Shown here one piece after another: positions 22,176 to 61,644 of a DNA stretch of 64,000 nucleotides. Both the position numbers and the translations under genes were made by a program. This stretch comes from Limosilactobacillus sp. (lineage in GTDB: Bacteria; Bacillota; Bacilli; Lactobacillales; Lactobacillaceae), in the NCBI RefSeq assembly GCF_022482365.1, contig NZ_JAKVPE010000001.1, positions 1,736,001 to 1,800,000 of the forward strand, given 5' to 3'. The first letter of the stretch is position 1, and each line of letters begins with the position of its first letter. The notes beneath the pieces are model-generated. The model made no database searches, was not told the DNA's origin, and saw only the letters and a program-made list of their open reading frames with translations.

Positions 22176-22769
22176 TCAGATGAATTTCATGGAGACTTGA
22201 TCTGGCTTTTCTGAATGCTCGGCAATTACCGTAGCAAGCCCGTCTACGAGGACACGTCTCACAAGGGCAACAGCCGAGTCGGCGTCAAAATGCTTTCCCT
22301 TACTGTACCAGGAGACGTAGAATGACAAACCCGACATGATAGCAAAATCAAAAACATATTCCATATCCTGATCAGTTGGTGGAATGGCGAATACTTTAAA
22401 ATAATAGGGCTTTAATGCTTCTTTGATTTTGACGGCGAAATGCGGATCGCCATTTTCACTCAGAAGATACCACAAAATTTCGCCGCTCTCTTCATTGATG
22501 CGGGTAAAAGAGTGGATAAACGCTGCCGTTAGACTTTCGGTTGAGCTTAATGTGAAAATTTTAGTAAGTGAAGCAATCAGCCGATCTTCCGTTTGATCTC
22601 TAAGGTCGTAGATATCCGAGTAATATTCATAAAAAGTGCTACGGTGATAACCCGCACAGGAACAGATATCTTTGACCGAGATGCGGGTAAATTCTTTTTC
22701 CCGGCAAAGCTTAAAAAGAGCAGTGGTAAAGTTTCCCTTTGTAATCCTGCGTTTCTCTTGTTGTTTCAT
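22176..22769 (-). CDS. TetR/AcrR-family regulator
   Basis: A 197-residue protein. The N-terminal HTH (residues about 10-56) has ISVKDICSCAGYHRSTFYEY, the TetR recognition helix with the usual T-F-Y-x-Y/H-F ending. The rest is an all-helical ligand domain of unknown specificity. It is divergent from the unknown gene at 22914, with two inverted repeats between them, so it probably represses itself and that gene. Base composition is more AT-rich than the flanking AraC and YczE-like genes, in line with acquisition as a unit. Confidence 0.9.
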   Translation of the reverse strand: MKQQEKRRITKGNFTTALFKLCREKEFTRISVKDICSCAGYHRSTFYEYYSDIYDLRDQTEDRLIASLTKIFTLSSTESLTAAFIHSFTRINEESGEILWYLLSENGDPHFAVKIKEALKPYYFKVFAIPPTDQDMEYVFDFAIMSGLSFYVSWYSKGKHFDADSAVALVRRVLVDGLATVIAEHSEKPDQVSMKFI

Positions 22770-22788
22770 GATGGCCTCCTAAAATCCG

Positions 22789-22861
22789 ACAGTCTTGCGA
22801 CGACTGTACGTTGTTTCTCCATATGGCAGGCTTTATATTGTAATTGTACGACAGGTTGTCG
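22789..22861. promoter_or_regulatory. TetR operator candidates
   Basis: The divergent intergenic region holds ACAGTC-N7-GACTGT (22789-22807) and CGACAGGTTGTCG (22849-22861), related inverted repeats sharing GACAG/CTGTC-type half-sites. Spacing on both sides of the promoter region fits repressor binding. This is inferred from symmetry only. Confidence 0.5.
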
Positions 22862-22913
22862 GAAGTTTTGCAACATTAATTCAAAAATTATCATCTAAAT
22901 GGAGGGTTTAATC

Positions 22914-23687
22914 ATGTTCAATTGTAAAGCAGTTATTAACGATCAGACCTACACGCCGGAACTTCTCGAATGGATTTTTTATCAACGAACAATTTATACA
23001 CTTCACGAAATGAAACGCTTGGGGGCAGAAATCAAGGACGGCAATCGGATCCTCTCTGACAGCGACATCAATTTCCTTGGAATGAAGGATGCCAAGAGAA
23101 TTTCCATTGCTGTTCGGCAAGAACTTGGCATTGAAGGCGTTAAAAAATTGTATGCCGATGCGCTTAAAAACTCTGATGCATTTTGGAAAAATATTCATAG
23201 TCAGAGTGGCAAAGCAACAGCGGCTAAAGAGGCTTATACCTATCTGAAAATTGAGGGAATTACAATGCAGGACATGCAAAAAGTCGTCCGTGCTTCAGGT
23301 AGTGAAGGGGATACCATCGGCTACGTTTCACATCCAGAACATTTCTTTGTTACGGCGGATGCCGAGGGGAACAGAGGAATGGAAACAATGGGGATGTATG
23401 GGGAACCCGTGGATGAGATTGTCGTTTTTGATCAGTCCCTGGATATTCCCAAGGGAAAAGATCCTGAATATCCACTGGCAATGACAAGCTATACGAAACT
23501 GGCCTCAGATGGCACGCCAACCGGCATTCGGATCTTGAACCAGTTTAAACCGGCCGACAATGGACTCGAATTAAAACTCAGCATCTTCTTCCCAGAGAAG
23601 ACCCCGGACGAAATGGTCTTTGGGCACGAGGTTCATCTCGCAATCGAGTTTTACGAAATGGCCAAGCAAGTGTATGCTACTAAGTAA
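22914..23687 (+). CDS. Unknown 257-residue soluble protein
   Basis: No family is recognised. The ATG at 22914 is preferred because the upstream in-frame ATG at 22899 overlaps the ribosome site GGAGGG. The N-terminal half is helical and charged; the middle has VSHPEHFFVTADAEGNRG and VDEIVVFDQSLDIPKGKDPEYP; the C-terminal half looks beta-rich (GIRILNQFKPADNGLELKLSIFFPE, read as two adjacent segments). No signal peptide or membrane helix. It is divergent from a TetR gene, so probably induced by that regulator's ligand. Together the two genes form a module bracketed by the 48-bp repeats. Confidence 0.8.
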   Translation: MFNCKAVINDQTYTPELLEWIFYQRTIYTLHEMKRLGAEIKDGNRILSDSDINFLGMKDAKRISIAVRQELGIEGVKKLYADALKNSDAFWKNIHSQSGKATAAKEAYTYLKIEGITMQDMQKVVRASGSEGDTIGYVSHPEHFFVTADAEGNRGMETMGMYGEPVDEIVVFDQSLDIPKGKDPEYPLAMTSYTKLASDGTPTGIRILNQFKPADNGLELKLSIFFPEKTPDEMVFGHEVHLAIEFYEMAKQVYATK

Positions 23688-23731: not shown

Positions 23732-23779
23732 AAAAGCGTTTAGTGAATCAATCGCAGGTTCACTAAACGCTTTTTGCTA
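23732..23779. repeat. 48-bp terminator repeat, copy 2
   Basis: Identical to 22113-22160. Its last three bases form the stop codon of the minus-strand YczE-like gene, so this copy is the original neighbour of that gene. The distance between copies is 1619 bp. Confidence 0.9.
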
Positions 23780-24400
23780 TGCCACGGCACGCTGGCCGCC
23801 TGCCAAGAGCGGTTCGGCGACGTGGGTGCGGAACCACTGGGTGAGCGGCCCCATGAAGAGGGCGGTGACGATCGTGCCCACCCCGAGGGTCACGTTGAAG
23901 AGAAAACCAACCAGGACGCAGAGGCTGTCGCTGATGATCCGGCAGTACTTGAACGGCAGGAGCTTGTACTGGTAAGCGGCGATCAGGGCAATCGCGTCGT
24001 AGGCCGAAACGCCCAGGTCGGCGGTGAAGTAGAGCGCCGCTGCCAGACAGGCGAAGACGATGGCGACTACCATCAGCGTTGCACGGAAGACAAGCCCCGG
24101 ATGCGGTGCCAGGATGTCGAGCAGGTGGTGCATTCCGTCGGCCGCCACCCCGGTGAAGAAGAGGTTAATGACCGTTGCCACGCCGATGTAGTGGCGGCGC
24201 AGGACGAAGACCAGCACCAGCAGGAGTCCGGTAAGGATTAGGTAAAAAGTTGAATAAGTAGAGCTGAAGATATTGGCGATCCCGGTGACGAAACAGGTGA
24301 AGGGATCCACGCCAAGGTCAGCCTTTTGCAGGGCACCGACGCAAAAGCCACAGAGAACAACGCCACAAAAAGCCATGATGATTCTTCGTACTTGGTACAT
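23777..24400 (-). CDS. YczE/YitT-like integral membrane protein
   Basis: A 207-residue protein with about five hydrophobic helices. The pair of D/S-LGVxxxD/T motifs (KADLGVDPFTCF near residue 27 and TADLGVSAYDAI near residue 127) is characteristic of the YczE/COG2364 family, an internally duplicated membrane protein family of unknown transport function. GGAGG precedes ATG 24400. A paralogue lies at 59070-59693, there coupled to a terpene-cyclase-like protein. The stop codon overlaps the 48-bp terminator repeat. Confidence 0.85.
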   Translation of the reverse strand: MYQVRRIIMAFCGVVLCGFCVGALQKADLGVDPFTCFVTGIANIFSSTYSTFYLILTGLLLVLVFVLRRHYIGVATVINLFFTGVAADGMHHLLDILAPHPGLVFRATLMVVAIVFACLAAALYFTADLGVSAYDAIALIAAYQYKLLPFKYCRIISDSLCVLVGFLFNVTLGVGTIVTALFMGPLTQWFRTHVAEPLLAGGQRAVA

Positions 24401-24716
24401 TTCCTACCTCCGATCTTAACCACTTGAGCAAAATATGAAAATAACAGCGGCAATCTTAACTGCTGTCATTTCCCAAACCAGAGCCTATTGTAGCGCTTTC
24501 ATCATTGAAAGAGAATAACTAAATGTTGGAGGAAATGCACATTTTGTGGACCAAAACCAATCTCTTTTTAGGGATGAGGTATAATCGCCTAGAGAAGCAC
24601 AATTAACGAAAAGGTTCAATGTCAAACACTTGCCGTTAACTGATTTTGTGTGATAATAGTTGTAAATATTAATGCTTTAATGGTCTAAACTATCGCAAAA
24701 GGGAGAATTGGTAATT
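24401..24716. other. AT-rich intergenic region with surface-protein promoter
   Basis: Between the divergent YczE-like and surface-protein genes. The best promoter toward the surface protein is TTGCCG (24630-24635) and GATAAT (24652-24657), spacer 16 bp, leaving a leader of about 55 nt. A TATAAT-like box near 24580 lacks a convincing -35. No coding frame or terminator is seen. Confidence 0.5.
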
Positions 24717-27700
24717 ATGGTTGGAAAGAATAATCAACAAAATAGGTTACAACATAGCGCGGACCGGGTGCCGCACTATGGATTGCGGAAACTGTCGATC
24801 GGCGTTACTTCGGTACTGCTATCAACGATGATATACCTGGGGGGGGTACAAACTGCCCAGGCGGACGCTGATACGCCGCCCCAGTCTAATGAAACTGAGG
24901 TGAGTTCGGCTGGAAATGAATTGCAGGGTAGCCAGGCAACGCTGAAGACGAGTACGAGCCAGGCTGGTCAGACTACTCAAGGTGAATCAGCGGCTTCCAG
25001 TGCTTCACAATCTAGTTCTAGTGCACAGCCCGCACCCCAAGCCCTTCCAGCTCCGACGACTCCCATTGAAGTTCCGGCAAATCAGGACGCAAATACTAAT
25101 AAGCAAGAAGTCGGTCAGGGACAATCCCAAACTGTAAGTCTGAACGATGGTGATCAGGCCAGTATCACGATTAGCAACGACCAGCTCGACGAGGCTAAGA
25201 GCAGTTCGAGCTTGAAATTCATTTCGAATAACTTCCAAGATGATGACGTCTACCAGATTTATATCCCAAAGGGTGGGATTGAAGTTGGCAGTAATGACGT
25301 GGCTAAACTGGGATCCTATTTGGGAACAACGACTTTTACTGAGGATCAGAATTACTACATCATCACGGATCGCTTTACTACTACTGGCAGCGTCAAACAA
25401 ACAATCACCCTCAGTTTGTCGTCTGTTCCTGGACTTACGGAGGCCGGTTCTTACGAAAAGGTCATCAATCACGGTTACGTTACTAAAAACGGCAGCAAAA
25501 TTGGGAATTTTGATATTCAGGCCATTGGTCGGCCGTTCACCTTGGAGGAAGATAACGGTTCAACCATTGAAAACGTCTGGAATAAGAAGAGCGGGGTCGA
25601 CCTGGTGACCAAACTTGTCCCGGGGACCGTCAACATGATGGGGTCCAAGGACAACCTGACCCACATGACCGTGGTTTATAACAACCTGCCCGATTATTAC
25701 CAGCCAACCAAGGTTGACCTGAAGGAAGGCGACAGGATCATCGAGAGCATTGCTGTCACTAGCGGCATGGTCTCGGGTAAGACGCTGACGATTGACATCC
25801 CGGTGGACAGTAATTCCCAGCTGCGTTCACTGCTGAACGCCAGGGAACTGCAACTGATTCTGACGGGGGTTTACAACGTGCCCGACAGCGCCTTTGCCAA
25901 CGGGGTTTACAACACCACCCTGCAGCAGCCTGCCGTCACCCTGACCGACCAAAACAACTATTCGCTGACTCAGACGGCGGCGCCGGTTAACCTAAAAATC
26001 TTTGAATCCACGGATAATACCCAGATTGGTCAGCTGGTTGGGGTTAATCAATCATACGAAGCCGACTACACGAACAAGACTGACGACGTCCCAGAGAATA
26101 CAGTGGACGTTGATACTACGCACAAAAATGGAGGCTCTGGCTTTTATGCCACGGTCACCCCGATTTCCAACCGGCAGGCAACCAACGTCGTCATTTCTGT
26201 ACAAATCCCTAACGGGGTCAATGCGCATTCCGTTCAGCTCTCCAGCAACAATAAAGGGCTTGCGGATTTGGATTTGAGTTACGGGGTTCAAATCACTTAC
26301 ACCGATGGTACGACGGCCTTGATCAAGGAGATTCCTAATAACGGGATCATTCAGGGAGCAGCCAACAAATCCATCCGGTCCTTATCAGTCCGGTTCGCGA
26401 CCTACGATTATGAAGATCAGCTGAGCTTCCAATTGAAGCAGGGGTCCAATTTCACCCTGGCTTCCAGCTACGCGAACGGCAACCCAGTTGCCAGCGGCGA
26501 CCTGCTGGTCTTGAAGGCCAGCGTGTCGGCCGATCAGGCACCGGTGGCCTCGTTTAACACGACTTATGACCGTCTCACCTTGTTCAAAAGCAATAAACAG
26601 GGTGTGTTAATGGCTTCGGACAGTTCTCAGAACTCTGTTGATCCGGGGGTCGTTAGCGCCGGCAGCATTGGCTATGAAATCACCGATTCCGGGTATGGCA
26701 AACCGCAGCTGGACCAGCCAATTATGTACATCGAAGTCCCGGACAACGCCATCCTGGACCCAAACAAGGCTATCCAAGTCGGCGAAGCTGGAAATGCGAT
26801 GCCATGGGGCAATGGTCACACTTCATTAACTCCAAAAAGCACCACGACCTTGAATATTAATGGCCACACCTTTTTGAAGATCGACCTGTCAAACTATGCT
26901 CATTTGGAAAATGGATTTTCGGTCAAGGTCTACTACAGCAACGGGATCGACTACCTGACCTCGGTAAAGCACACGCCATTCCTGGTGGTCGCCAAGAATG
27001 GGGATCAAGTTGAATCCGTCAATGATAATTCCAATAACGCAGCGGACCACCGCCCGACCAGCAATAATTTCGAAGCCAGCGATAAGGATACCTTTGAGGC
27101 CCTGGTCAGCCAAGAACACATCGATGTTCAAAAGGCAATGTATCATGGCAGCAGCGAAACCGGCCTTGGATATAATGCGCAGTGGAAGATCAACGTGGCA
27201 GCCGGGACCGTACCGGCAACTATGACCCAAGGAAATACGAATACTACTTCCGTAAGTACTTCAACCCAGGATATCAGTGGCAATGACCCGACCCATTTTA
27301 CGATCTTCGGTTCACTGATCAACGGAGATTCAGACGCTAAAATTGAGCACGCCACTCAGGTCATTAATCTGCCAAGCACAGAGGACGGCAAGAGTGGATT
27401 CACCCCAGCGTTGACCGGCCCAGTTTCTGTGACCGACCCGAATACGAACACGGACCTCTCCAATCAAGTGACGGTCACTTACTACACGGACCGCGCCGAC
27501 TTAGATCAAGGCGCAAACAGCCTAGCCGGTAGGACGGGCCTGACGGCTGACCAAGTAACCGATTGGAGCAAAATCAAGGCCATCAAGATCGTCTTTAATT
27601 CGGAAATTAATAAACAGTTGACAGCCCGGGTGACCATGAAGATGATTGACAATCAGATTTATGATCATGTTGGCAAGTCTATCTATGCTTCAGAACTTGT

Positions 27701-30700
27701 CTATAGCTCTGGTGACGATCTACGGCAAATCGCCATTCACCCGGGTGACAAATCCTCGGCTAAGCTGACAGTTGTCGGGAAATCAACAGTCAAAACTATC
27801 GTTCACTATCAGGATGATAACGGGACTGACCATTATGTTGAATTGTCAGATAAGGCCGTGACCTATAACGATGACGGCAGCGCAACGATGAAGCGGACGG
27901 ACTTCGTGACTAAGGACAGCGATTTGACCAACAGCGATCACATGCTGCTGCCGGAACACATGGTTCTGGACTATGACCACCCAACGATTAAAAATTCGAA
28001 TGCCAGCTACGCCGCTGGTTATACCAACGGAACGGCCGCCTTCGACCAGACGGTGGCGTATGACTTTGACGGGGATGCAGTGGTCTTCGAAGGCAAAGTC
28101 GCGCAAAAGGTTACTGGAGAACATCAAGTTACTAGAACTGTTCACTATGTTTATGCTGATGGTTCTAAAGCGCACAACGATGCTGTGCAGACGTCAAAGA
28201 AGTTTGAAAGCACTGGCTACAAAAATCCATTCACCGGTAAAGTTGCCTGGTCCGAGACAGTGGCAACGGATACTCTGCCTGAGGTGACGAGTCCAACTAT
28301 TGACGGCTATACACCAGATAAAACTTCGGTTGCCGCGGTGACCGTTGATTCGTCGACTGATGATTTGGTCGAAACGGTGACCTACTCGCCAGCTGACGAA
28401 ACAGCTAAAGTTGAGTACATTGATGATTCCGATAATTGCAAGGTTCTTGAAACAAAATCGCTAGCCGGTAAATATGGGGCAGATTCTGGCTACAACACTA
28501 AGAAAACCATTGCTAAGTATGAAAACTTAGGCTATGACTTGGTTTCCGACCCGACTAAGGGGCAGAACGTGGTCTTCACCAGCAGTCAGGATCCCATCAA
28601 GGTTCACCTGAAATTTGTTGGACATGCAGTCATCGTTAAATTTATTGATGATGATACCGGCGAACAAATCGACAGTACTTATAGCTCATCGGGCCGCGTT
28701 GGTGCGGAGCTTTCAGATGATCAGCTTAAAGTCCCGGTGAATGAAGAATTAGCGGAGTTGACGCAAAATTGGTATGACTCTAATGGTAATAAGCACAAAG
28801 ATGGAAAGTATGCTCGCTACCAATTGGTCAGCAACGGCTTCACCGCTTTTGACGGAAAAATTGGCAATCAGGACCTGAATTATGTAATTCACGTCAAAGA
28901 GAATGTCGTTCAGGAAAAGCTTGATATTCCAATTGCCCTCCCGCCAATTGTGCAGGTGGATCCCGCATACGCCGATCAGCTAGCACAGGCTTACACTGAC
29001 GGGACATATTCTGATACGAGCAATGCCGATCACCAAACCCTGGTCGATCATGCTCACCTGATCTACGGGACATTAGTGCCGAATGCAGATGGTAAGGTTG
29101 ATACCTTATCTCCGCACAATACCAATGGTGGCAGCATTCAATTCAATTTGGATGGAACTCCTTATACTTATGAAGGAGAGGATGCCGACTCCTTGATGGG
29201 TTCAATCCAGGGCCTGCAAAAAGCCAACCACTTGGACGCAACCATCACCTTTGATCTCAACATTGCCAAAAACTACAATGGTGACGAGAACCAAGGTGTT
29301 TCCAACTTAAAGATTGCTTTTGGTGATTATCACGGCTTTGATACAAAAGGCTATCATGACCTGAAAATGCTGGTTCAGGATCCCCAAAGCGGCCAATACA
29401 AGTGGATTTCATTAAATGATCCAACGGTGTTACAAGCTGAGATGAGTGCCGAAGATTATGTGAAGAGCGTTATCGACCAAAGTAATGGTTCTTCTGGCCT
29501 AACTATTGATGGCATTCAGGTTACGCCTTCATCATCTAGTATCTATGTTTACTATTCACCAAATTATGAATCAGGGTATAGCTCCATGATTCCGGCAACG
29601 ACGATCGCAACCAAGCAATACGAGCAATATCAACAAGATTACACGACGGCATATATGCCACAAAATTCGTCCTACGTCATTACCTACATCACAATGACTC
29701 CTGACACGGAACAGGCCACGATCGAGTACATTGATGACACGACTGGCCAGACTTTGGCAACTGAGCAAACTAGCGGCGACTATAATTCGGTAATTAATTT
29801 CCCAACTAAACCAACTGATAAGATCAGCGCCTACGAAGGACAAGGCTACGAGCTGGTTTCCAATGACTTCACAGATGGCACTAAATACGGCTTAAAGAAT
29901 AATTTCGAAGTCCATCTGAAACATGGCACGCATGTCGACTACGATTTTAAGACGGTTACGGAAACGATCCATTACAAGTATGATAATGGCACGACGGCTA
30001 AACCGGATAAGGTACAGAGCTTCACCTTTAGTCGCAGCAAGACGACTGACTTAGTAACCAAAAAATCTAAATGGAGTGCTTGGTCAGAAAATGGTCGGCA
30101 CACGTTTGCCGAAGTGATTAGCCCAACGATTGATGGCTATACTCCTGATTACAGCAGTATCGAAAGTGTTACTGTTGATCCTGATAGTCAGAATATCGAA
30201 AAGACGGTTATTTATACTGCCGACAAACAAAACGCCAAGATTACCTACATTGATGATACGACTGGTCAGATCTTAAACACGGATACTGCTACTGGCAAGT
30301 CTGGCGATGAGATTAGTTTCAATATTGATCCAGCAACGCGGATCAATAATTACAAGAGTCAAGGTTATATTCTTGTTTCTAACAGCTTCACTGCCGGCGC
30401 TAAGTATGATTCTGATAATGCCAAGAACGTCTTCGTAGTTCACCTGAAGCATGGCACAAAGTCTGCAACGCAAGACGTAACGATCAAGCAGACGATTCAC
30501 TATATCTACGCTGATGGTACCAAGGCCGCTGATGATAATGTTCAAAGCGTTAAGTTTACCCGAACCGGGACAACTGACCTGGTAACGGGCAAGACGACTT
30601 GGAATCCGACGTCACCACAGAAGTTCAAAGACGTCACTAGTCCGACGATCAACGGCTATACTGCTGATCAGACGAGCGTCAAAGGAGCCACTGTTAATGC

Positions 30701-31157
30701 TGGCGATGCTGACGTTGTTAAGACGGTCATTTACACGCCGAATGGTTCGACGCAACCGACACAGCCAACGACAGCACCGAGCGAGCCAAGCAATCCGACG
30801 CAACCAACAACGGCGCCGAGTGAGCCAAGTAATCCGACACAGCCAACAACGGCGCCAAGTGAGCCAAGCAGTCCGACGCAGCCAACGACAGCGCCGAGTG
30901 AGCCAAGCAATCCTACCCAGCCGACTACCCCGGCAACACATGATGAGTCAGGACACCCTACCAAAGAAATCATTTCGTCAGGGAATCACGATTCAGTGAG
31001 TGGAAAACGGACAACGACAGGTTCGAGTGCAAAGCAAACCCAGCAGAACAAGTTACCGCAAACGGGCAATGATCGCTCCGAAGCCGCAATTGGCGGTTTG
31101 ATGCTAGTCGGCTTGACGAGTATGTTTGGCTTGGCTAAGCGGAAGAAACGTGACTAA
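24717..31157 (+). CDS. Large YSIRK/LPQTG mucus-binding surface protein
   Basis: The 2146-residue adhesin is exported and sortase-anchored. A YSIRK-type signal (YGLRKLSIGVTSVLLS, residues about 21-36; cleavage near AQA-D at about 50) is followed by a Ser/Thr/Gln-rich stretch to about 140. A large unique region runs to about 1025, with MucBP/Mub-B2-type repeats from about 1135 to 2008. MucBP copies start with [VAT]xYIDDTTGQ-like segments, and B2 copies contain HYxYADGTKA with SPTIxGYTPD. A non-repeat domain (about 1402-1662) interrupts the series. A Pro/Thr linker, LPQTG at 2113-2117, a hydrophobic helix and RKKRD complete the anchor. Start: ATG 24717 rather than TTG 24708, which overlaps GGGAG. 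Likely role: binding of mucin or other glycans; the ligand is not predictable. Confidence 0.93.
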   Translation: MVGKNNQQNRLQHSADRVPHYGLRKLSIGVTSVLLSTMIYLGGVQTAQADADTPPQSNETEVSSAGNELQGSQATLKTSTSQAGQTTQGESAASSASQSSSSAQPAPQALPAPTTPIEVPANQDANTNKQEVGQGQSQTVSLNDGDQASITISNDQLDEAKSSSSLKFISNNFQDDDVYQIYIPKGGIEVGSNDVAKLGSYLGTTTFTEDQNYYIITDRFTTTGSVKQTITLSLSSVPGLTEAGSYEKVINHGYVTKNGSKIGNFDIQAIGRPFTLEEDNGSTIENVWNKKSGVDLVTKLVPGTVNMMGSKDNLTHMTVVYNNLPDYYQPTKVDLKEGDRIIESIAVTSGMVSGKTLTIDIPVDSNSQLRSLLNARELQLILTGVYNVPDSAFANGVYNTTLQQPAVTLTDQNNYSLTQTAAPVNLKIFESTDNTQIGQLVGVNQSYEADYTNKTDDVPENTVDVDTTHKNGGSGFYATVTPISNRQATNVVISVQIPNGVNAHSVQLSSNNKGLADLDLSYGVQITYTDGTTALIKEIPNNGIIQGAANKSIRSLSVRFATYDYEDQLSFQLKQGSNFTLASSYANGNPVASGDLLVLKASVSADQAPVASFNTTYDRLTLFKSNKQGVLMASDSSQNSVDPGVVSAGSIGYEITDSGYGKPQLDQPIMYIEVPDNAILDPNKAIQVGEAGNAMPWGNGHTSLTPKSTTTLNINGHTFLKIDLSNYAHLENGFSVKVYYSNGIDYLTSVKHTPFLVVAKNGDQVESVNDNSNNAADHRPTSNNFEASDKDTFEALVSQEHIDVQKAMYHGSSETGLGYNAQWKINVAAGTVPATMTQGNTNTTSVSTSTQDISGNDPTHFTIFGSLINGDSDAKIEHATQVINLPSTEDGKSGFTPALTGPVSVTDPNTNTDLSNQVTVTYYTDRADLDQGANSLAGRTGLTADQVTDWSKIKAIKIVFNSEINKQLTARVTMKMIDNQIYDHVGKSIYASELVYSSGDDLRQIAIHPGDKSSAKLTVVGKSTVKTIVHYQDDNGTDHYVELSDKAVTYNDDGSATMKRTDFVTKDSDLTNSDHMLLPEHMVLDYDHPTIKNSNASYAAGYTNGTAAFDQTVAYDFDGDAVVFEGKVAQKVTGEHQVTRTVHYVYADGSKAHNDAVQTSKKFESTGYKNPFTGKVAWSETVATDTLPEVTSPTIDGYTPDKTSVAAVTVDSSTDDLVETVTYSPADETAKVEYIDDSDNCKVLETKSLAGKYGADSGYNTKKTIAKYENLGYDLVSDPTKGQNVVFTSSQDPIKVHLKFVGHAVIVKFIDDDTGEQIDSTYSSSGRVGAELSDDQLKVPVNEELAELTQNWYDSNGNKHKDGKYARYQLVSNGFTAFDGKIGNQDLNYVIHVKENVVQEKLDIPIALPPIVQVDPAYADQLAQAYTDGTYSDTSNADHQTLVDHAHLIYGTLVPNADGKVDTLSPHNTNGGSIQFNLDGTPYTYEGEDADSLMGSIQGLQKANHLDATITFDLNIAKNYNGDENQGVSNLKIAFGDYHGFDTKGYHDLKMLVQDPQSGQYKWISLNDPTVLQAEMSAEDYVKSVIDQSNGSSGLTIDGIQVTPSSSSIYVYYSPNYESGYSSMIPATTIATKQYEQYQQDYTTAYMPQNSSYVITYITMTPDTEQATIEYIDDTTGQTLATEQTSGDYNSVINFPTKPTDKISAYEGQGYELVSNDFTDGTKYGLKNNFEVHLKHGTHVDYDFKTVTETIHYKYDNGTTAKPDKVQSFTFSRSKTTDLVTKKSKWSAWSENGRHTFAEVISPTIDGYTPDYSSIESVTVDPDSQNIEKTVIYTADKQNAKITYIDDTTGQILNTDTATGKSGDEISFNIDPATRINNYKSQGYILVSNSFTAGAKYDSDNAKNVFVVHLKHGTKSATQDVTIKQTIHYIYADGTKAADDNVQSVKFTRTGTTDLVTGKTTWNPTSPQKFKDVTSPTINGYTADQTSVKGATVNAGDADVVKTVIYTPNGSTQPTQPTTAPSEPSNPTQPTTAPSEPSNPTQPTTAPSEPSSPTQPTTAPSEPSNPTQPTTPATHDESGHPTKEIISSGNHDSVSGKRTTTGSSAKQTQQNKLPQTGNDRSEAAIGGLMLVGLTSMFGLAKRKKRD
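30755..30928 (+). repeat. Pro/Thr wall-spanning repeats (39-bp units)
   Basis: About four tandem 39-bp units encode PTQPTTAPSEPSN-type 13-residue repeats, one with SS for SN. Extended Pro-rich linkers of this kind span the cell wall before the LPQTG anchor. Such arrays often vary in copy number. Confidence 0.85.
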
Positions 31158-31205: not shown

Positions 31206-31250
31206 AAAGTCCTCCACTAGCACTACTTGAGTGTTAGTGGAGGACTTTTT
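31206..31250. terminator. Terminator after the large surface protein
   Basis: A near-perfect stem of about 18 bp (AAAGTCCTCCACTAGCACT with AGTGTTAGTGGAGGACTTT) followed by Ts. It also serves the convergent minus-strand operon. Confidence 0.88.
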
Positions 31251-31273: not shown

Positions 31274-31885
31274 TTATTCCTGAATTCGAGGCCACCGGGC
31301 GAGGAGAACAATGTAAGCAATGTCAAATACCGAACACAAGGCACCGCAGACGATGACGTAGATGTTGATTTCTTGGAGAACCCCCATCAAAATGGTTGGC
31401 GCCAGGGTGCCCAGCCATTTGGCAACCGCAATGGTCATGCTTTGCCCCCTTTTGCCGTCACGCTTGAAGAGCATCGCGATAAAGAGAAGCGACATCACTA
31501 GATTCTGCAAGAAGGCGGAATAACGGGAGCCATAGCGCAGGCCGAACTGCCAGTAGAAGGCCAGCTGGACTAACAGGCAGGTTGCAAAAACGGTGATGCT
31601 GATCGGGACGAAGAATCGCTGACTATTGGCGGAAAATTCCTTGCGCCCGAACTTGAAATAAGTATAGACAATCAGCAGATCACAGACAAACCAGACAAGG
31701 TTCGCAATTGTTTGTGCCGAAAAGGACTGAAGGTCGACGAAGGAATAGATCCCTTCCCAGGCAATGTTTAAAGCGAGGGCGAAGAGGGGCATGCTATAGG
31801 TCTTGTCCTTAAATCCCAGGCGAATGCATTCAATGTAGACAATCGTCCATGCGATTCCGCTGACAAGGGTTAAAAAGAGGGTCAT
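31274..31885 (-). CDS. Small membrane protein resembling Pyr4-type terpene cyclases
   Basis: The 203-residue integral membrane protein has about seven helices. MPLFALALNIAWE (residues 32-44), CD at 68-69 and VFD ending at 188 are conserved with the paralogue at 58430-59086. A glutamate in an N-x-A-W-E motif after the second helix and an aspartate near the C-terminus are what is known to be essential in fungal transmembrane terpene cyclases (Pyr4, PaxB, AtmB), which have the same size and topology. The match is motif-level inference; it could act on another lipid or isoprenoid. It is the second gene of an operon, 17 bp after the CrtC-like gene, with GGAGG before ATG 31885. Confidence 0.7.
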   Translation of the reverse strand: MTLFLTLVSGIAWTIVYIECIRLGFKDKTYSMPLFALALNIAWEGIYSFVDLQSFSAQTIANLVWFVCDLLIVYTYFKFGRKEFSANSQRFFVPISITVFATCLLVQLAFYWQFGLRYGSRYSAFLQNLVMSLLFIAMLFKRDGKRGQSMTIAVAKWLGTLAPTILMGVLQEINIYVIVCGALCSVFDIAYIVLLARWPRIQE

Positions 31886-31902
31886 CGTCTCAGCCTCCCG
31901 TT

Positions 31903-32907
31903 CTATTCGTTGGCCTTATGCGGGAATACAACCTCGTGCAGCGAATGGGTTTCGTCGACTTCCTCCTGACCGTGGCGCTTAACGGTTAAAGTTTCGTTGC
32001 CGACGTAGCGATAAGCGGATTCTCCACCGGTTGGCAACTCGTTTAGGTCCTTCATGACAAAGTGATCGACTTTGATGTCCAGGTCCAACTTGATTTCCGG
32101 CGTCTTAGCATGGATCACCAGCCGCTGGGCAAAGGACAAGCCGAGCGTTGGCTCCTTGACCGTGTCCAGCAGCTCGAAGCTGACTTCGCCCTTGCGATGG
32201 TGCTCGTCACCGGGCTCCAGGTAAAGATGATCCCGATCCTCGACCAGGAGGGTAATTGCCGGTGCCACATTCGGGTTGGCTGGAATCATGATCCCGTAGT
32301 CAACTGCCAGTTCGGCCGTGTGGACCTTTCCCCAGTGCCAGTGGTCAAGCATGTCCCCGTTGTCCATATTCATCCAGTTGTGATCGTGGTAGCCGGTCCC
32401 CTTAACCATGATTGTTTCCTGGTTCTTAACCAGCTTTCCTTCCACCCGGGCCGCCGGTTGGGCCACCACCCAGGCCTTTTCGTCCCCGGTCTGCGGGTTA
32501 TACATTAGGCGCCCTTCCTTGCCCGCTTGCCAGCCCGGTACCTGAGGATAGAAACGCAGATCCACTTCGTAACCGTTAGCGCGGGCCCGGACCTCATAGT
32601 GGTCACCGCAGTCCCGGCACCATTCCTGGTTGGCAAAGTTGGCAGCACACTTTTCACGACTGAAGGCGGCGTCCTCTTCGGTGTATTCGTTGATGAACGA
32701 ATGGTTGTGTCCGTTCTTTTCGTAGAGGTCGAAGCGCACGGACGGCTTGCGAGGGTACAGGCGGGTGTCGTTGACCGAGTACATCAGGACCAGCCGATCG
32801 CCGTTGTCGAGGTCGGCGTCGAAGTACCACCATTCGGCCTCCTTGTTGCGTTCCTTGATTGGATAATTAATGTGAAGCTTGTCGTATTCTGCTTGGTAGT
32901 TTTTCAT
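31903..32907 (-). CDS. CrtC/AttH-like lipocalin-fold protein (hydratase or cyclase-like)
   Basis: The 334-residue protein has two features of the CrtC/AttH family: EWWYFDADLDNG (residues 25-36), the E-W-W-Y entry to the first lipocalin barrel, and GTGYHDHNW with DHWHWG (170-193), the His/Asp/Trp-rich second motif. Known members include carotenoid 1,2-hydratase and fungal Diels-Alderases, which act on isoprenoid or polyene substrates. There is no signal peptide, so it is probably cytoplasmic. First gene of an operon with the membrane cyclase-like protein, divergent from a TetR gene. GAAGGGAAG precedes ATG 32907. The actual reaction is unknown. Confidence 0.75.
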   Translation of the reverse strand: MKNYQAEYDKLHINYPIKERNKEAEWWYFDADLDNGDRLVLMYSVNDTRLYPRKPSVRFDLYEKNGHNHSFINEYTEEDAAFSREKCAANFANQEWCRDCGDHYEVRARANGYEVDLRFYPQVPGWQAGKEGRLMYNPQTGDEKAWVVAQPAARVEGKLVKNQETIMVKGTGYHDHNWMNMDNGDMLDHWHWGKVHTAELAVDYGIMIPANPNVAPAITLLVEDRDHLYLEPGDEHHRKGEVSFELLDTVKEPTLGLSFAQRLVIHAKTPEIKLDLDIKVDHFVMKDLNELPTGGESAYRYVGNETLTVKRHGQEEVDETHSLHEVVFPHKANE

Positions 32908-33015
32908 GTTCTGATCTTCCCTTCAATAATGTTTTTGTTGATAATTGAAGTATACGGATCCGCACGAAATTTTATAAGATACAATCAAACGCGTTTTGTT
33001 ACATGGAGGAAAAAG

Positions 33016-33540
33016 ATGGCAGAATACTCACTCAAGGCGTCGGCGCTCATCACCGATGCCCTATTTGAACTCCTCAAGAAGAACTCCTTTGAAAAGATCA
33101 GCATCACGGAACTTACCCAAAAGGCCGGGGTCGCGCGCCTGTCCTACTACCGGAATTTTAAAAGCAAAGAAGATATCGTTGAGAAATTCTTTGACCACGA
33201 ATTCAAGAACTTCATGGCTGAACTCGCCAAGCAGGACCAATCCCAGGTCAGCTTGCAAAGCATCATGATCCTGAGCTTTTCCTATTGGCAAAAAAAGCAC
33301 CAGCAAATCAGGATGCTGGTGCGTGATGGTCAAATTGATTTGATTTATCTGTCGTTTCAAAAGAACATGCAGCTTATTTTGCAACGGTACCAGGAACAGT
33401 TTTCCCTGACCCAGCGCCAGGCGGAGTTCGTGGAGGGTGGCATCATGATTGTCCTCCTGGAATGGATCCAGGATGGCTGCCAGGAGACGCCCGAAGAGAT
33501 CGCCGCTGACGTCGGCCGGCGCTTCCTGTTCAACATTTAG
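33016..33540 (+). CDS. TetR/AcrR-family regulator of the CrtC-like operon
   Basis: A 174-residue protein. The HTH (residues about 8-55) contains KISITELTQKAGVARLSYYR and FKSKEDIV, a TetR pattern with S-Y-Y in place of T-F-Y. A long upstream extension of the frame (to 32527) is only the antisense of the neighbouring gene; ATG 33016 has GGAGGA seven bases upstream. It is divergent from the CrtC-like operon across 108 bp containing the CGGATCCG palindrome near 32956, so it probably represses both directions. The stop overlaps that of the convergent EamA gene by 4 bp. Confidence 0.9.
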   Translation: MAEYSLKASALITDALFELLKKNSFEKISITELTQKAGVARLSYYRNFKSKEDIVEKFFDHEFKNFMAELAKQDQSQVSLQSIMILSFSYWQKKHQQIRMLVRDGQIDLIYLSFQKNMQLILQRYQEQFSLTQRQAEFVEGGIMIVLLEWIQDGCQETPEEIAADVGRRFLFNI

Positions 33541-34617: not shown

Positions 34618-35571
34618 ATGCAAACAGTTAAAATTGGCGGTACCAATTGGGTGGCTTCGAACGTGGCCCTGGGGATCATGCGGATGGGCACCCTGCCCGT
34701 TCCGCAGGCGGTCGAAGCTCTGCAAATGGCCCACGAGGTCGGAATCAACTTCATCGATTCGGCGGATATTTACGGCAACGATCCCGTGCTCGGTCGGGGA
34801 TCTTCCGAGATTCATTTCGGCCAGGCCTTCAAGAAGAGTGGCTTGAGTCGGGATGATTTCTACATCCAGTCCAAGGGCGGCCTCTTTGCCAACAGCGACA
34901 ACAAGATCACCCGCTACGACTCGTCCAAGACGCATCTCATTCAGGCCGTCGACGGGATCCTCCAGCGGATGGGAATCGACTACCTGGATTCCTTCTTGAT
35001 CCACCGGCCCGACCCGCTGATGGACCCGGCGGAAGTCGCGGCGGCTTTTGATGAGCTCCAGGCGGCGGGGAAGGTTCGCCACTTCGGCGTCTCCAACTTC
35101 AACCCCCAGCAGATCGCGCTACTGCAGTCGGCCACCGATCAGCGGCTGTTGGTCGACCAGGTCCAGTTCAGTATTGCCCACACGGGGATGATCGACTTTG
35201 GCCTCCACACCAACATGACCGACGCCCGCTCGATCAACCACGACGGCGGCCTGCTCGAGTACGCCCGGCGCAAGCACATGACGATCCAGACCTGGTCACC
35301 GTTCCAGTATGGGACCTTTGCCGGCACCTTCATCAACAATGACAAGTTTGCCGACCTCAACGACCTACTGGCCAAGCTGGCGGATAAGTACCATGCCAGC
35401 AAGAACGCCATCGCGGTGGCCTGGATTCTACGGCACCCGGCCCAGATGCAGGTCCTACTCGGCACGATGAACACGGCCCACATTGCCGACAGCGCGGCCG
35501 GTTCCGACATCCGGTTGACCAAGCAGGAATGGTACGACATCTACTTCGCGGCCGGCAACGACCTGCCATGA
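34618..35571 (+). CDS. Aldo-keto reductase, YdhF-like
   Basis: The 317-residue TIM-barrel NADPH oxidoreductase carries the complete catalytic tetrad: Asp and Tyr in FIDSADIYG (residues about 45-53), Lys in IQSKGG, and His in FLIHRPDP. SNFNPQQIALLQS and TWSPFQYG are family-typical, and the C-terminal LLGTMNTAHI binds cofactor. It probably reduces small carbonyls in the cytoplasm. In contrast to the broken AKR at 3403, it is intact. Its stop codon overlaps the start of the PAP2 gene (ATGA), implying translational coupling. Confidence 0.92.
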   Translation: MQTVKIGGTNWVASNVALGIMRMGTLPVPQAVEALQMAHEVGINFIDSADIYGNDPVLGRGSSEIHFGQAFKKSGLSRDDFYIQSKGGLFANSDNKITRYDSSKTHLIQAVDGILQRMGIDYLDSFLIHRPDPLMDPAEVAAAFDELQAAGKVRHFGVSNFNPQQIALLQSATDQRLLVDQVQFSIAHTGMIDFGLHTNMTDARSINHDGGLLEYARRKHMTIQTWSPFQYGTFAGTFINNDKFADLNDLLAKLADKYHASKNAIAVAWILRHPAQMQVLLGTMNTAHIADSAAGSDIRLTKQEWYDIYFAAGNDLP

Positions 35572-36092
35572 TCAGGCATGACTACGTGGCCTTCTATCAG
35601 CGACTGACCGCGCCGTTCGTCCGCCATCCCGGCTGGATCCGCCTGCTGCGGTTTTTCAACCACCTAATCGAGGTTGTGATGTACGGCTGCTACATTGCCC
35701 TGCTTGCCGGTCTGATCTGGCTGGGGAGCCGGGTGAGCTGGGATGCAGCTTTCCATCGGGTGTTGCCCTTTGTTCTCGTGCCGGGGATCAGCTTCATCCT
35801 GCTCTCGCTGGTACGGGACTGGCTGAACAGCCCCCGGCCCTACGAGGAATGGGCGATCGATCCCCTGATTCCCCGAACCAAGAAGGGGGACTCGATGCCG
35901 AGCCGCCACGTCTTTTCGGCGGTCACGATTGCCATGTGCGTGCTGCGGCTCAGCTGGCTCTGGGGGGCACTGTTCCTTGTCCTGGCGGCCGCATTGGCCC
36001 TGATCCGGGTGATCGGCGGGGTTCACTACCCGCGCGACGTCATCGTGGGTGCTCTCTGTGGCCTGGTAGCCGGTAGCTTATTGTTTATTTAA
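35568..36092 (+). CDS. PAP2-family membrane phosphatase
   Basis: A 174-residue membrane protein with about five helices and the three PAP2 motifs: RDWLNSPRP (KxxxxxxRP-type), SMPSRH (PSGH-type, with Arg replacing Gly) and RVIGGVHYPRDV (SRxxxxxHxxxD-type). Such enzymes dephosphorylate lipid pyrophosphates or phosphatidic acid-type lipids at the membrane; in bacteria, recycling of undecaprenyl pyrophosphate is one role. The start is ATG 35568 within the AKR stop; the longer frame is not needed. Confidence 0.9.
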   Translation: MIRHDYVAFYQRLTAPFVRHPGWIRLLRFFNHLIEVVMYGCYIALLAGLIWLGSRVSWDAAFHRVLPFVLVPGISFILLSLVRDWLNSPRPYEEWAIDPLIPRTKKGDSMPSRHVFSAVTIAMCVLRLSWLWGALFLVLAAALALIRVIGGVHYPRDVIVGALCGLVAGSLLFI

Positions 36093-58366: not shown

Positions 58367-58429
58367 GCTTCTTGATGTTTAATGCCAGGGCCGTATAGTC
58401 GAAATAGACGCTATCAAGGGGGAATGCAA

Positions 58430-59086
58430 ATGCTTGGAACAGTTTTAGTCGGCATCAGCGGAGTCGCGTGGACGGTGGTCTACATTGAGTTGATTCGCCG
58501 GGGCTTTCGTGAGCGGGCGTGCGGGATGCCGCTCTTCGCTCTGGCGTTAAACCTGGCCTGGGAATGGCTCTACGGCCTGGACGGGTTCTTCGGCAGCCGT
58601 TCCTTTATCCCGGCCCAGTCAATCGCCAACATCGCCTGGGCGCTCTGCGACGTCGCGGTTCTGGCCACCTGGCTGAAGTTTGGCCGGCAGTATTTGCCGA
58701 AGTGGGGCCAGCACTTTTTTGTCCCCTATACCTGTTTGGCGCTGGGCTTTGGTTTTGCCCTGCAACTGGCCTTTTATTTCAACTGCGGCACCATGGAGCG
58801 GGCGTCGATCTACTCGGCCTTTGCCCAAAACGCGGCGATGTCGGCGATGTTTATCGACCAGCTGCTGCGCCGTCCCGATATCAAGGCGCAGTCGCAGAGC
58901 ATTGCCATTGCCAAGTGGTTGGGGACGCTCGCCCCGACGATTTATGGGCAGCTCAACGGTAATTCCCTGGGAAACTATATTTTAATCACGGGGATTGTCT
59001 GCTGCGTCTTTGACCTGCTTTACATTGCCCTATTGAGGCAGCGACAAAGAACCTTGGGGAGGTGGGCAGATGAAGAAAAAGCTTGA
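58430..59086 (+). CDS. Second Pyr4-like small membrane protein (paralogue)
   Basis: A 218-residue protein with about seven helices, paralogous along its full length to the 31274-31885 product. Shared blocks are AWTxVYIExIRxGF, MPLFALALNLAWE (Glu at 45), QSIANIAW-x-CD, FFVP, QLAFY, AKWLGTLAPTI and CxVFDxxYI. The Glu of the N-x-A-W-E motif and the late Asp correspond to essential residues in fungal transmembrane terpene cyclases; the functional link is inference. ATG 58430 is preferred because AAGGGGG is too close to ATG 58424. The last 17 bp overlap the YczE-like gene, so the two are co-translated. Confidence 0.72.
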   Translation: MLGTVLVGISGVAWTVVYIELIRRGFRERACGMPLFALALNLAWEWLYGLDGFFGSRSFIPAQSIANIAWALCDVAVLATWLKFGRQYLPKWGQHFFVPYTCLALGFGFALQLAFYFNCGTMERASIYSAFAQNAAMSAMFIDQLLRRPDIKAQSQSIAIAKWLGTLAPTIYGQLNGNSLGNYILITGIVCCVFDLLYIALLRQRQRTLGRWADEEKA

Positions 59087-60346: not shown

Positions 60347-60991
60347 TTATTCTTTATAAACATTTTTCAGCCACTTGAGCGATTGCTGAACGCTGTCCTG
60401 GCCGAAGCTGTACTGTTTCAGCTGGCCTAGTTTCTTGTAGATTGGCGACTTGAAGGCCATCCAGTAGTTGAAAACAATCCAAACGATGGCCAGCACGTAG
60501 TCGACCCAGTTGAAGTAGTACTGGTGGTTGCCGATGAAGTAGCAGATCGAGATTGGCGTCAGGCCGAAGAAGGCGGTCAGAAGGCCCGGGTTGTACCAAA
60601 ACTTCATCTTGATTGGGAAGAAGAAGGTGTGCATTGCAAATTCGAGGAAGGCGAAGAGCATTACGGCCAGCGTCAGCCAGCGGTATTGCGGCAGCAACAG
60701 GGCCAGCAGGTAGACGGCCACGGCGAAGTACTCGTTGCCCCAGGCCGTGGTGGCAAGGTTGAGGTCCCAGCTCTTGGGATCGGTGTTGGTGATGTGAAGC
60801 TCCAGGTATTCGCCCATAAAGGGAAAACCGCCGGGGTAGCCCATTTCTTCGTAGAAGTGCAGGTGGATCATGGCCATTGCCCCGAGGACCATCTTGGCGC
60901 GGAAGTCCAAGGGAGCGATTAAAGCAATCACAAAGATGAGGCCGGCGATCAGGACGCTGATCTTGTACCAATTTTTCAGGTAGTAGTTCAT
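60347..60991 (-). CDS. HXXEE-domain membrane protein
   Basis: A 214-residue membrane protein with about six helices. HLHFYEEMGYPGGF (about residues 44-57) contains the H-x-x-E-E motif that names this family; a second His-rich helix (EFAMHTFFFPIKMKFWYNPG) and NHQYYFNWVDYVLA follow. The conserved acidic and His residues within helices suggest a membrane metalloenzyme, but the family has no proven function. ATG 60991 has AAGGAGG; the longer frame to 61069 is unlikely. It is divergent from a TetR gene. Confidence 0.82.
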   Translation of the reverse strand: MNYYLKNWYKISVLIAGLIFVIALIAPLDFRAKMVLGAMAMIHLHFYEEMGYPGGFPFMGEYLELHITNTDPKSWDLNLATTAWGNEYFAVAVYLLALLLPQYRWLTLAVMLFAFLEFAMHTFFFPIKMKFWYNPGLLTAFFGLTPISICYFIGNHQYYFNWVDYVLAIVWIVFNYWMAFKSPIYKKLGQLKQYSFGQDSVQQSLKWLKNVYKE

Positions 60992-61089
60992 GAATTTCTC
61001 CTCCTTAAATGTCATGGTTGTGACTTTTATGATGCTATCGTATACTGGGAGGAAAGCAGGCGCAATCAATTAGAGACGAGGTGGCACGA

Positions 61090-61644
61090 ATGAACGAAAA
61101 CGTGACAGTTAAGCACGTCCGACAGCGGCAGATCGAACAGACCCAGGCGGACTTTACCGAGGCCCTGTACCGGCTATTGAAGAAGGAAAAGCTCGCCAAG
61201 ATCAACATTGCCCAGCTGTGCACGACGGCGGGCTATGCGCGGCGAACCTTCTACCGCCACTACTCGTCCGTTGCGGATCTCCTCTTGCAGGAGGTGGATC
61301 GACAAACCCTGGCGTTGATGGCCCAGCTCAAAAACGCCAATGACTTTGAGGCGGTAGTCCAGTGTTTCTTTACCTACTGGGCCCAGCACACGGCGCTGCT
61401 GACGATTCTGCGCCAAAACGACAGCTTCCACCTGCTGATCAATTCGTGGACCCACCACCTGGAGGACAGCGAGCTTTCCCAAAGCGACGTTAAGGACAAT
61501 CTTTACGCCCAGTTCTTCGGGGTGGGTGGGATGTTTCAGATGCTGTATCTCTGGAGCTGGCGCGATTTTCAAGAAACGCCAGCGCAGATGCAGTTGATTG
61601 CCGACCAGATTACCGACCACCTGAAGAAGAACAGCTTTCACTAG
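61090..61644 (+). CDS. TetR/AcrR-family regulator
   Basis: A 184-residue protein. The HTH (residues about 12-60) has KINIAQLCTTAGYARRTFYR and HYSSVADLL, the TetR pattern. It is divergent from the HXXEE membrane protein across about 100 bp and is its probable repressor. ATG 61090 is chosen with GAGG upstream; the GTG at 61081 overlaps that site. Confidence 0.9.
   Translation: MNENVTVKHVRQRQIEQTQADFTEALYRLLKKEKLAKINIAQLCTTAGYARRTFYRHYSSVADLLLQEVDRQTLALMAQLKNANDFEAVVQCFFTYWAQHTALLTILRQNDSFHLLINSWTHHLEDSELSQSDVKDNLYAQFFGVGGMFQMLYLWSWRDFQETPAQMQLIADQITDHLKKNSFH

What the first reader, a model, noticed from the sequence alone, without database searches (positions are those of the whole stretch)
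31274..33540. Operon pairing a CrtC-like lipocalin enzyme with a Pyr4-like membrane cyclase, under TetR control
Seen: two minus-strand genes 17 bp apart encode a protein with E-W-W-Y and H-D-H-N-W motifs and a seven-helix protein with N-I-A-W-E and a late V-F-D, divergent from a TetR gene. Known: CrtC/AttH proteins hydrate carotenoids or catalyse cyclisations, and Pyr4/PaxB-type membrane cyclases need a Glu and an Asp at these positions. Inference: a small isoprenoid- or lipid-modifying pathway in a lactobacillus. The pairing would be new to me in gut lactobacilli.
Basis: partly seen in the sequence, partly recalled or inferred. Interest (0 to 1): 0.75.

Follow-up and report, generated by a model that had tools for sequence, protein, structure and literature searches.

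The report
Terpene-cyclase-like operon in lactobacilli
A Limosilactobacillus carries a small, probably switchable operon whose two proteins look like a membrane terpene cyclase and a carotenoid-hydratase-type lipocalin, although the bacterium lacks the key enzyme for making carotenoids, so the operon may instead alter terpene-like molecules met from outside.

Summary
The minus-strand genes 31274-31885 and 31903-32907 lie 17 bp apart, divergent from a TetR gene (33016-33540). The 203-aa protein belongs to the Pyr4-type transmembrane terpene cyclases (PF25129, 105.5 bits, cutoff 27). It keeps eight of the nine residues whose mutation impaired the bacterial cyclase DmtA1. Its confident model (pLDDT 91.7) has the seven-helix SWEET/KDEL-receptor fold. 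The 334-aa protein belongs to the CrtC lipocalin superfamily (34 bits, cutoff 22.5) but fails the carotenoid-hydratase model (14 of 400 bits). The genome has no squalene/phytoene synthase and no P450.

The pairing is rare but recurrent. Close relatives of both genes sit together in L. kribbianus and in a Lactobacillus MAG, where a flavin-reductase-like gene lies between them; a looser pairing occurs on a Streptomyces plasmid. Most other Pyr4-like loci examined have no CrtC-like gene. Across Lactobacillaceae, CrtC-like genes co-occur with an unnamed ~257-aa family that also lies in this window beside its own TetR-like gene.

Best reading (0.4): a ligand-induced, oxygen-independent toolkit that cyclises, hydrates or reduces C=C bonds of exogenous terpenoid or prenylated compounds. 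Substrate unknown. New variant of a known kind.

The parts
31274..31885 (-). Pyr4-like transmembrane terpene cyclase homologue (203 aa), second gene of the operon
   Evidence: PF25129 105.5 bits vs cutoff 27; W13,Y17,N40,W43,E44,D69,D188,Y191 match DmtA1 W29,Y33,N56,W59,E60,D94,D214,Y217, DmtA1 E133 is not kept; model pLDDT 91.7
31903..32907 (-). CrtC/AttH-like lipocalin protein (334 aa), first gene of the operon
   Evidence: PF07143 34 bits vs cutoff 22.5; H176/W178 in 32 of 32 aligned relatives
32908..33015 (.). divergent intergenic region, likely promoters and TetR operator; long blocks conserved in L. kribbianus and the L004 MAG
   Evidence: alignment; no operator proven; promoter-like sites at chance level
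33016..33540 (+). TetR-family regulator (174 aa), divergent
   Evidence: TetR_N 30.5 bits (cutoff 24) and TetR_C_8 31.3 bits (cutoff 26.1)
31206..31250 (.). strong hairpin with T-rich tail on both strands between operon end and adhesin end, probable bidirectional terminator
   Evidence: fold -31.6 (+ strand) and -27.3 (- strand) kcal/mol, z -9.3 and -8.1; not listed by the pattern scan, which covered the place
58382..59086 (+). second Pyr4-like homologue (218-234 aa by start codon, 47% identical to the first)
   Evidence: PF25129 73 bits; BLAST 46.8%; same W-Y-N-W-E spacing and D/Y residues
59070..59693 (+). YczE-like membrane protein (DUF6198) overlapping the second Pyr4-like gene by 17 bp
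   Evidence: PF19700 75.1 bits vs cutoff 27; YczE equivalog 45.3 of 205 bits
59690..60238 (-). TetR-family regulator converging on the second module
   Evidence: TetR_N 32.3 bits vs cutoff 24
60347..61069 (-). HXXEE-family membrane protein; relatives lie within three ORFs of Pyr4-like genes in L022 and L036
   Evidence: PF13787 43.6 bits vs cutoff 25; cluster 19
61081..61644 (+). TetR-like regulator divergent from the HXXEE gene
   Evidence: TetR_N 18.3 bits, below cutoff 24
22899..23687 (+). member of an unnamed ~257-aa family (cluster 4) that travels with CrtC-like genes
   Evidence: profile A6 E 7e-73; no Pfam family
22176..22769 (-). TetR-like regulator divergent from the cluster-4 gene
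   Evidence: TetR_C_8 23.5 bits and TetR_N 17.5 bits, both below their cutoffs

Best explanation
The operon is a TetR-switched, oxygen-independent toolkit for terpenoid or prenylated compounds that enter the cell from outside. An inducing ligand releases TetR. The CrtC-like lipocalin binds the hydrophobic substrate and may add water to an isolated C=C. The Pyr4-like membrane protein protonates a terminal alkene directly (E44, with D69 and D188) and cyclises the prenyl chain. In a related operon a flavin-reductase-like enzyme would saturate further double bonds. Shown: gene order, family memberships, conserved residues, predicted fold of the membrane protein, TetR neighbourhood, recurrence. Inferred: induction, substrate class, and every reaction.
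For: Pyr4-type family membership. Eight of nine DmtA1 functional residues present, among them D69, placed opposite D94 by spacing; the DmtA1 paper ties D94 to direct olefin rather than epoxide protonation. No P450 in the one-contig genome, so olefin protonation fits. No SQS_PSY, so no carotenoid or squalene of its own for a CrtC. A TetR-cluster gene lies within three ORFs of the Pyr4-like gene in 21 of 25 entries and of the CrtC-like gene in 20 of 29. L004 operon with a FAD_binding_2+FMN_bind protein between the two genes, and a FAD_binding_2 protein beside CrtC in L072. Patchy distribution, own genome included: Pyr4-like in 3 of 50 genus, 10 of 397 family and 1 of 348 phylum genomes.
Against: No substrate, product or induction data. 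DmtA1 E133, which that paper also found needed, faces Q107 or L108 here, so the link to olefin protonation is incomplete. P0002 is only 19-24% identical to the other Lactobacillaceae CrtC-like proteins aligned, and its Asp268 equivalent is not found. Most Pyr4-like loci lack a CrtC neighbour: 0 of 11 Bacillota MAG loci in the 3.4-12.6 kb held, and 7 of 11 other Pyr4-bearing Lactobacillaceae genomes have no CrtC match at all. The fold is shared with transporters and receptors. MenA-type prenyltransferase and polyprenyl synthase genes exist, so a prenyl-quinone made by the cell is not excluded as substrate.
Confidence: 0.4

Rival explanations
1. The two proteins act on an isoprenoid made by the cell, such as (demethyl)menaquinone or another polyprenyl lipid: the Pyr4-like protein cyclises a prenyl quinol to a chroman-like ring and the lipocalin binds it.
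For: The genome encodes a MenA-type DHNA prenyltransferase (443 bits, subfamily cutoff 289) beside a polyprenyl diphosphate synthase; a PAP2 phosphatase gene lies near the operon at 35529-36092.
Against: MenA lies about 0.3 Mb away; Pyr4-like genes are patchy (10 of 397) and usually next to TetR genes, unlike a core lipid pathway.
Confidence: 0.2
2. The membrane protein is a PQ-loop/SWEET-type exporter or importer and the lipocalin a cytosolic carrier; the operon is a TetR-controlled efflux or uptake unit with no chemistry.
Against: The DmtA1 residue set is kept in 25-26 of 26 relatives at eight positions; Pfam at E<=1 finds only the terpene cyclase family, no SWEET/PQ-loop family.
Confidence: 0.17
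3. The CrtC-like and Pyr4-like proteins are a membrane-lipid or fatty-acid modification pair (e.g. hydration of unsaturated acyl chains) unrelated to terpenoids.
For: The AttH/CrtC/Svf1 lipocalin group is linked to lipid metabolism by the AttH structure paper (PMC2954199, only the listing seen); sub-threshold Svf1 hit.
Against: Pyr4-type cyclases named in the 2026 paper act on prenyl chains (PMC13307353).
Confidence: 0.13
4. A remnant of a secondary-metabolite cluster, now decaying, with no coherent present function.
For: Sporadic distribution; decayed relatives (internal stop in G097, Pyr4-like split between frames in G061, CrtC fragment in G300).
Against: dN/dS of 0.055-0.155 against L. kribbianus and the same 17-bp spacing.
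Confidence: 0.1

Closest known systems
Pyr4-type transmembrane terpene cyclases; bacterial examples DmtA1, XiaH, TylF, GroF, ZigF
   Same: PF25129 membership, seven helices, DmtA1 residues W29,Y33,N56,W59,E60,D94,D214,Y217 present
   Different: DmtA1 E133 not kept. No prenyltransferase or epoxidase in the operon; next to TetR. The JACS 2026 survey kept 264 of 1107 bacterial candidates as having terpenoid genes nearby; this one would not have passed that filter by its neighbours
Carotenoid 1,2-hydratase CrtC (PF07143) and AttH-like lipocalins
   Same: PF07143 over cutoff; His239/Trp241 equivalents H176/W178; AttH 2ich matched by profile A4 at E 0.017
   Different: Equivalog model 14.1 of 400 bits; no Asp268 equivalent found by sequence; no squalene/phytoene synthase in the genome
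SWEET / PQ-loop / KDEL receptor fold
   Different: No sequence-family match in Pfam at E<=1; carries terpene-cyclase residues
Flavoprotein reductases of the fumarate-reductase/flavocytochrome c type (partner in L004 only)
   Same: FAD_binding_2 and FMN_bind domains over cutoff
   Different: Below every NCBIfam cutoff among the 25 of 79 families shown; absent from the window's own operon

Membership tests
Pyr4-type transmembrane terpene cyclase | Family profile over curated cutoff | tested here: met
   PF25129 105.5 bits vs 27
Pyr4-type transmembrane terpene cyclase | Catalytic Glu in N-x-x-W-E and late Asp, with Trp/Tyr/Asn partners | tested here: met
   W13,Y17,N40,W43,E44 at DmtA1's spacing; D188-Y191 at DmtA1's spacing; 25 or 26 of 26 relatives
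DmtA1-like olefin-protonating subgroup | Extra acids D94 and E133 of DmtA1-3 | tested here: inconclusive
   D69 kept in 26 of 26 and placed opposite D94 by the 119/120 spacing to D188; E133 faces Q107 (Q in 19 of 26, E in 1) or L108 by counting
Pyr4-type transmembrane terpene cyclase | Compact seven-helix membrane protein | tested here: met
   AF2 pLDDT 91.7, helices 2-26, 34-53, 57-83, 92-141 (counted as two), 150-171, 175-196
Pyr4-type transmembrane terpene cyclase | Cyclisation of a prenyl chain | not testable with these tools
   needs an enzyme assay
Meroterpenoid biosynthetic gene cluster | Linked prenyltransferase and epoxidase | tested here: not met
   Next genes on the TetR side are EamA, aldo-keto reductase and PAP2, on the other side a mucin-binding surface protein; the only UbiA is MenA-like and 0.3 Mb away; no P450; FAD_binding_3 gives three short or marginal matches of 21.8-24.1 bits against a cutoff of 22
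Carotenoid 1,2-hydratase CrtC | PF07143 lipocalin domain | tested here: met
   34 bits vs 22.5
Carotenoid 1,2-hydratase CrtC | NCBIfam equivalog NF045922 | tested here: not met
   14.1 bits vs 400
Carotenoid 1,2-hydratase CrtC | His239 and Trp241 | tested here: met
   H176 and W178, same spacing, 32 of 32
Carotenoid 1,2-hydratase CrtC | Tyr266 and Asp268 | tested here: inconclusive
   Counting from Trp241 gives D203 and G205; the alignment column rich in Asp (19 of 32) is one further and holds I206. No true CrtC row was in the alignment and the structure job failed
Carotenoid 1,2-hydratase CrtC | Carotenoid substrate made by the cell | tested here: not met
   No PF00494 in the one-contig genome; the control rang in 7 of 14 genomes
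SWEET/PQ-loop/KDELR fold | Whole-length structural alignment to solved members | tested here: met
SWEET/PQ-loop transporter | Transport activity | not testable with these tools
   needs an assay
TetR-family regulator | TetR_N HTH over cutoff | tested here: met
   30.5 bits vs 24

The most novel reading that the evidence does not exclude
Pyr4-type terpene cyclases are SWEET/KDEL-receptor-fold proteins turned into enzymes, and their unlinked bacterial majority, exemplified here, are not natural-product makers but ligand-induced, oxygen-independent modifiers of external terpenoids in anaerobes and lactobacilli, working with CrtC-like lipocalins, flavin reductases and a still unnamed protein family.
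Probability: 0.3. Interest if true: 0.8.

Novelty: new variant of a known kind. Interest (0 to 1): 0.55.

Why it matters
Pyr4-type cyclases are known from fungal and actinobacterial natural-product clusters, and most bacterial homologues counted in a 2026 survey did not pass its filter for nearby terpenoid genes (PMC13307353). A two-gene operon beside a TetR gene in a Limosilactobacillus is a simple place to find out what such orphans do. If they transform dietary or host terpenoids, that would be new chemistry for these bacteria. The SWEET/KDEL-receptor fold of the cyclase homologue would also connect an enzyme family to a transporter and receptor superfamily.

Tried and rejected
Carotenoid pathway: rejected (no PF00494; equivalog far below cutoff). 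Defence system: PADLOC gave nothing for four proteins. Solved structures by sequence: none for P0001 at E<=5; for its profile A1 only proton-gated channel entries at E 0.044-0.048. For P0002, AttH at E 0.13 and small-GTPase entries at 0.35-0.55; profile A2 gave 7a0q (a CrtC-domain protein) at E 2.9e-5 and AttH at 0.0088; without the Streptomyces row, profile A4 gave only AttH at 0.017 within E<=0.1. A paper naming 7a0q was not found. TetR operator: inverted arms 32921-32930/32941-32950 in the window, but the left arm is not kept in L004, so not claimed. Cluster 4: Pfam at E<=10 for seven members gave only sub-cutoff hits to two of them (Botulinum_HA-17 13 bits, InvH 12.5 bits), none at E<=0.01 for an eighth, no NCBIfam for one, no credible PDB match (best E 0.11). 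Its invariant H141, E156, H242 and E246 remind me of the zinc ligands of PhlG/phloretin hydrolase, a recalled lead, not tested; the paper search was read as a listing only. A Pfam scan of further neighbours added little.

Literature: ten searches of open PMC papers. None listed a paper joining Pyr4 with lactobacilli or with the SWEET/KDELR/PQ-loop fold (one search was swamped by the word sweet). Subscription papers are not held, so 'not in print' is not claimed. Passages only were read of PMC11109268 and PMC10882540.

Rows dropped: from A1, L016 (the match breaks off after residue 172), L027 (internal stop), L030/L032 (two frames); three of the six plasmid hits (H4-H6) were not fetched. From A2, six rows of the list (L042, L055, L057, L058, L059, L074: partial, weak or overlapping). 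The below-cutoff Pyr4 match of G393 counts in the 10 of 397 and was dropped only in the strict test. L003 and L021 are one locus and both count among the 25. The overlap filter hid the CrtC ORFs of the window and of L003/L021, which tblastn recovered, so these are not among the 29. The cluster-4 profile was built from genes found beside CrtC-like or Pyr4-like genes, so its co-occurrence with them starts from a biased sample.
Full report
1. What is there. The window lies at 1736001-1800000 of a one-contig 2.34-Mb genome. A named Limosilactobacillus kribbianus contig carries the same operon at 94-97% protein identity, and its length (15783) is that of contig C46 of G023, a genome of the same genus, so the host is taken to be a Limosilactobacillus; its species is not known. 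The genes at 31274-31885 (203 aa) and 31903-32907 (334 aa) run on the minus strand with a 17-bp gap, and a TetR gene (33016-33540) runs away from them. A strong hairpin with T-rich tails on both strands ends the operon. Selection acts on all three genes: dN/dS against L. kribbianus is 0.155, 0.055 and 0.075.

2. The membrane protein. It scores 105.5 bits against Pfam PF25129, Pyr4-like transmembrane terpene cyclases (cutoff 27), and nothing else in Pfam at E<=1. Mutagenesis of the bacterial cyclase DmtA1 (PMC6173783; passages read) showed loss or impairment at nine residues: W29, Y33, N56, W59, E60, D94, E133, D214 and Y217. The window protein has W13, Y17, N40, W43, E44, D69, D188 and Y191 for eight of them. 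The spacings are 4, 23, 3 and 1 in the first block as in DmtA1, then 25 (34 in DmtA1), 119 (120), and 3 (3). Across 26 relatives the counts are W 26, Y 26, N 25, W 26, E 26, D69 26, D188 25, Y191 25. The ninth, E133, faces Q107 or L108 by counting and is not kept. D69 as the equivalent of D94 is my inference from the 119/120 spacing. The paper found D94 and E133 conserved only within DmtA1-3, says D94 is absent from XiaE/XiaH, which act through an epoxide, and links D94 to direct protonation of an alkene; D69 together with a genome without a P450 fits that, the missing E133 does not.

4. The lipocalin protein. It passes PF07143 (34 bits, cutoff 22.5) but reaches only 14.1 of 400 bits on the carotenoid-hydratase equivalog. 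Of the four residues essential in CrtC (PMC4717167; abstract and passages read), His239/Trp241 match H176/W178 in 32 of 32 aligned proteins. Tyr266 and Asp268 could not be placed: counting gives D203 and G205, and the Asp-rich column (Asp 19, Tyr 6, Glu 4, Ile 3 of 32) holds Ile206 in the window protein and its two close relatives. No structure could be made. The genome has no squalene/phytoene synthase, so a carotenoid made by the cell is unlikely. It does have a MenA-type prenyltransferase next to a polyprenyl diphosphate synthase, about 0.3 Mb away.

5. Recurrence. Among all loci held here, close relatives of the 334-aa protein were found only in L. kribbianus (96%) and in L004, a Lactobacillus MAG (81%); no scan of all genomes was made with this protein, only 301 Lactobacillaceae and the plasmids. 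In both, the Pyr4-like gene (94%, 83%) and the TetR gene (97%, 80%) are present. In L004 a 568-aa FAD_binding_2+FMN_bind flavoprotein lies between the two genes. On a Streptomyces plasmid the 53.8%-identical Pyr4-like protein overlaps a TetR gene, and a CrtC-like gene followed by a TetR gene lies 4.1 kb downstream, beyond a sigma-factor and a xylosidase gene. In Lactobacillaceae, PF25129 occurs in 10 of 397 genomes, 9 of them over the family cutoff, and the CrtC profile in 27 of 397; both occur in 4, expected 0.68 (Fisher p 0.0027; p 0.016 with 3 genomes after dropping the below-cutoff G393 and the G300 CrtC fragment; relatedness not corrected). In those four genomes the nearest matches lie 18, 3004, 4488 and 16161 bases apart, the last not remarkable by itself (chance bound 0.09). 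The Pyr4-like gene of G097 has an internal stop and the CrtC of G300 is a 36-codon fragment. Against the pairing: none of 11 Bacillota MAG loci outside Lactobacillaceae (L005-L015, 3.4-12.6 kb held) has a P0002 match, and 7 of 11 other Pyr4-bearing Lactobacillaceae genomes have no CrtC match. Outside the family, a draw of 348 Bacillota genomes had no PF25129 match but the window's own.

6. The wider set. A TetR-cluster gene lies within three ORFs of the Pyr4-like gene in 21 of 25 entries and of the CrtC-like gene in 20 of 29 (one locus counted twice among the 25). Of the 11 MAG loci L005-L015, 9 show one. CrtC-like genes also travel with a family of about 257 aa that Pfam and NCBIfam do not name: 19 of 27 CrtC genomes have it, expected 3.2, p 7e-14, relatedness not corrected and the profile built from such neighbours. 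One member lies in this window at 22899-23687, divergent from a TetR-like gene. Pyr4-like and this family share 4 genomes, expected 1.18, p 0.02. The window further holds a second Pyr4-like gene with a YczE-like partner and a TetR gene (58382-60238) and an HXXEE membrane protein divergent from a TetR-like gene (60347-61644). HXXEE genes also lie within three ORFs of Pyr4-like genes in L022, the sister species, and L036. The 39-kb stretch thus looks like an archipelago of separately switched small modules; that is a reading, not a test.

7. Mechanism. The shared theme is chemistry on C=C bonds without oxygen: cyclisation by protonation, hydration by protonation, and reduction by flavin. Given the TetR neighbourhood, patchy distribution, lack of prenyltransferase and epoxidase in the operon and lack of carotenoid synthesis, modification of external terpenoid or prenylated molecules is the best reading (0.4). 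Quinone modification, pure transport, fatty-lipid modification and decay are rivals, with the tests given.

8. Known or new. A 2026 survey (PMC13307353; parts 1 and 2 of 3 of the text read) found 1107 bacterial Pyr4-like sequences, of which 264 were kept as having terpenoid genes nearby. Bacterial members are thus known. The CrtC-like partner, the TetR neighbourhood, the flavin-reductase context in L004 and the SWEET/KDELR fold are what this case adds; the open-paper searches run here listed nothing joining them, which is not proof of absence.

Noticed in passing
window 58382-60238: Second Pyr4-like gene overlapping a YczE-like membrane protein gene, with a convergent TetR gene; the same set occurs in G023 (L022).
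   Followed up: partly
window 22176-23687: TetR-like gene divergent from a member of an unnamed ~257-aa family with invariant His/Glu residues, co-occurring with CrtC-like genes in Lactobacillaceae.
   Followed up: partly
window 23777-24400 and 59070-59693: Two 207-aa membrane proteins that look alike by eye; the second is DUF6198/YczE-like, the first has no credible Pfam match.
   Followed up: no
window 24708-31157: 2149-aa surface protein with YSIRK signal, mucin-binding MucBP_2/Muc_B2 repeats and LPXTG anchor, directly next to the operon end.
   Followed up: partly
window 56072-57202: Transposase, IS30-like by eye (HTH_38 over cutoff, rve just below), shortly before the second Pyr4-like module.
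   Followed up: partly
G000 C1:451298-453179 (L076): Second CrtC-like gene of the genome directly followed by a member of the unnamed ~257-aa family, 40 bp between the profile matches.
   Followed up: partly
L068:9811-10737 and L075:6649-7668: Membrane proteins of 308 and 339 aa beside CrtC-like genes, no Pfam match (L068 tested); by eye somewhat like CruF-type carotenoid proteins.
   Followed up: no
L037 (G097 C9): Dense cluster of an interrupted Pyr4-like gene, two members of the unnamed family, three CrtC-like genes and four TetR-cluster genes next to a phage-type integrase gene.
   Followed up: partly
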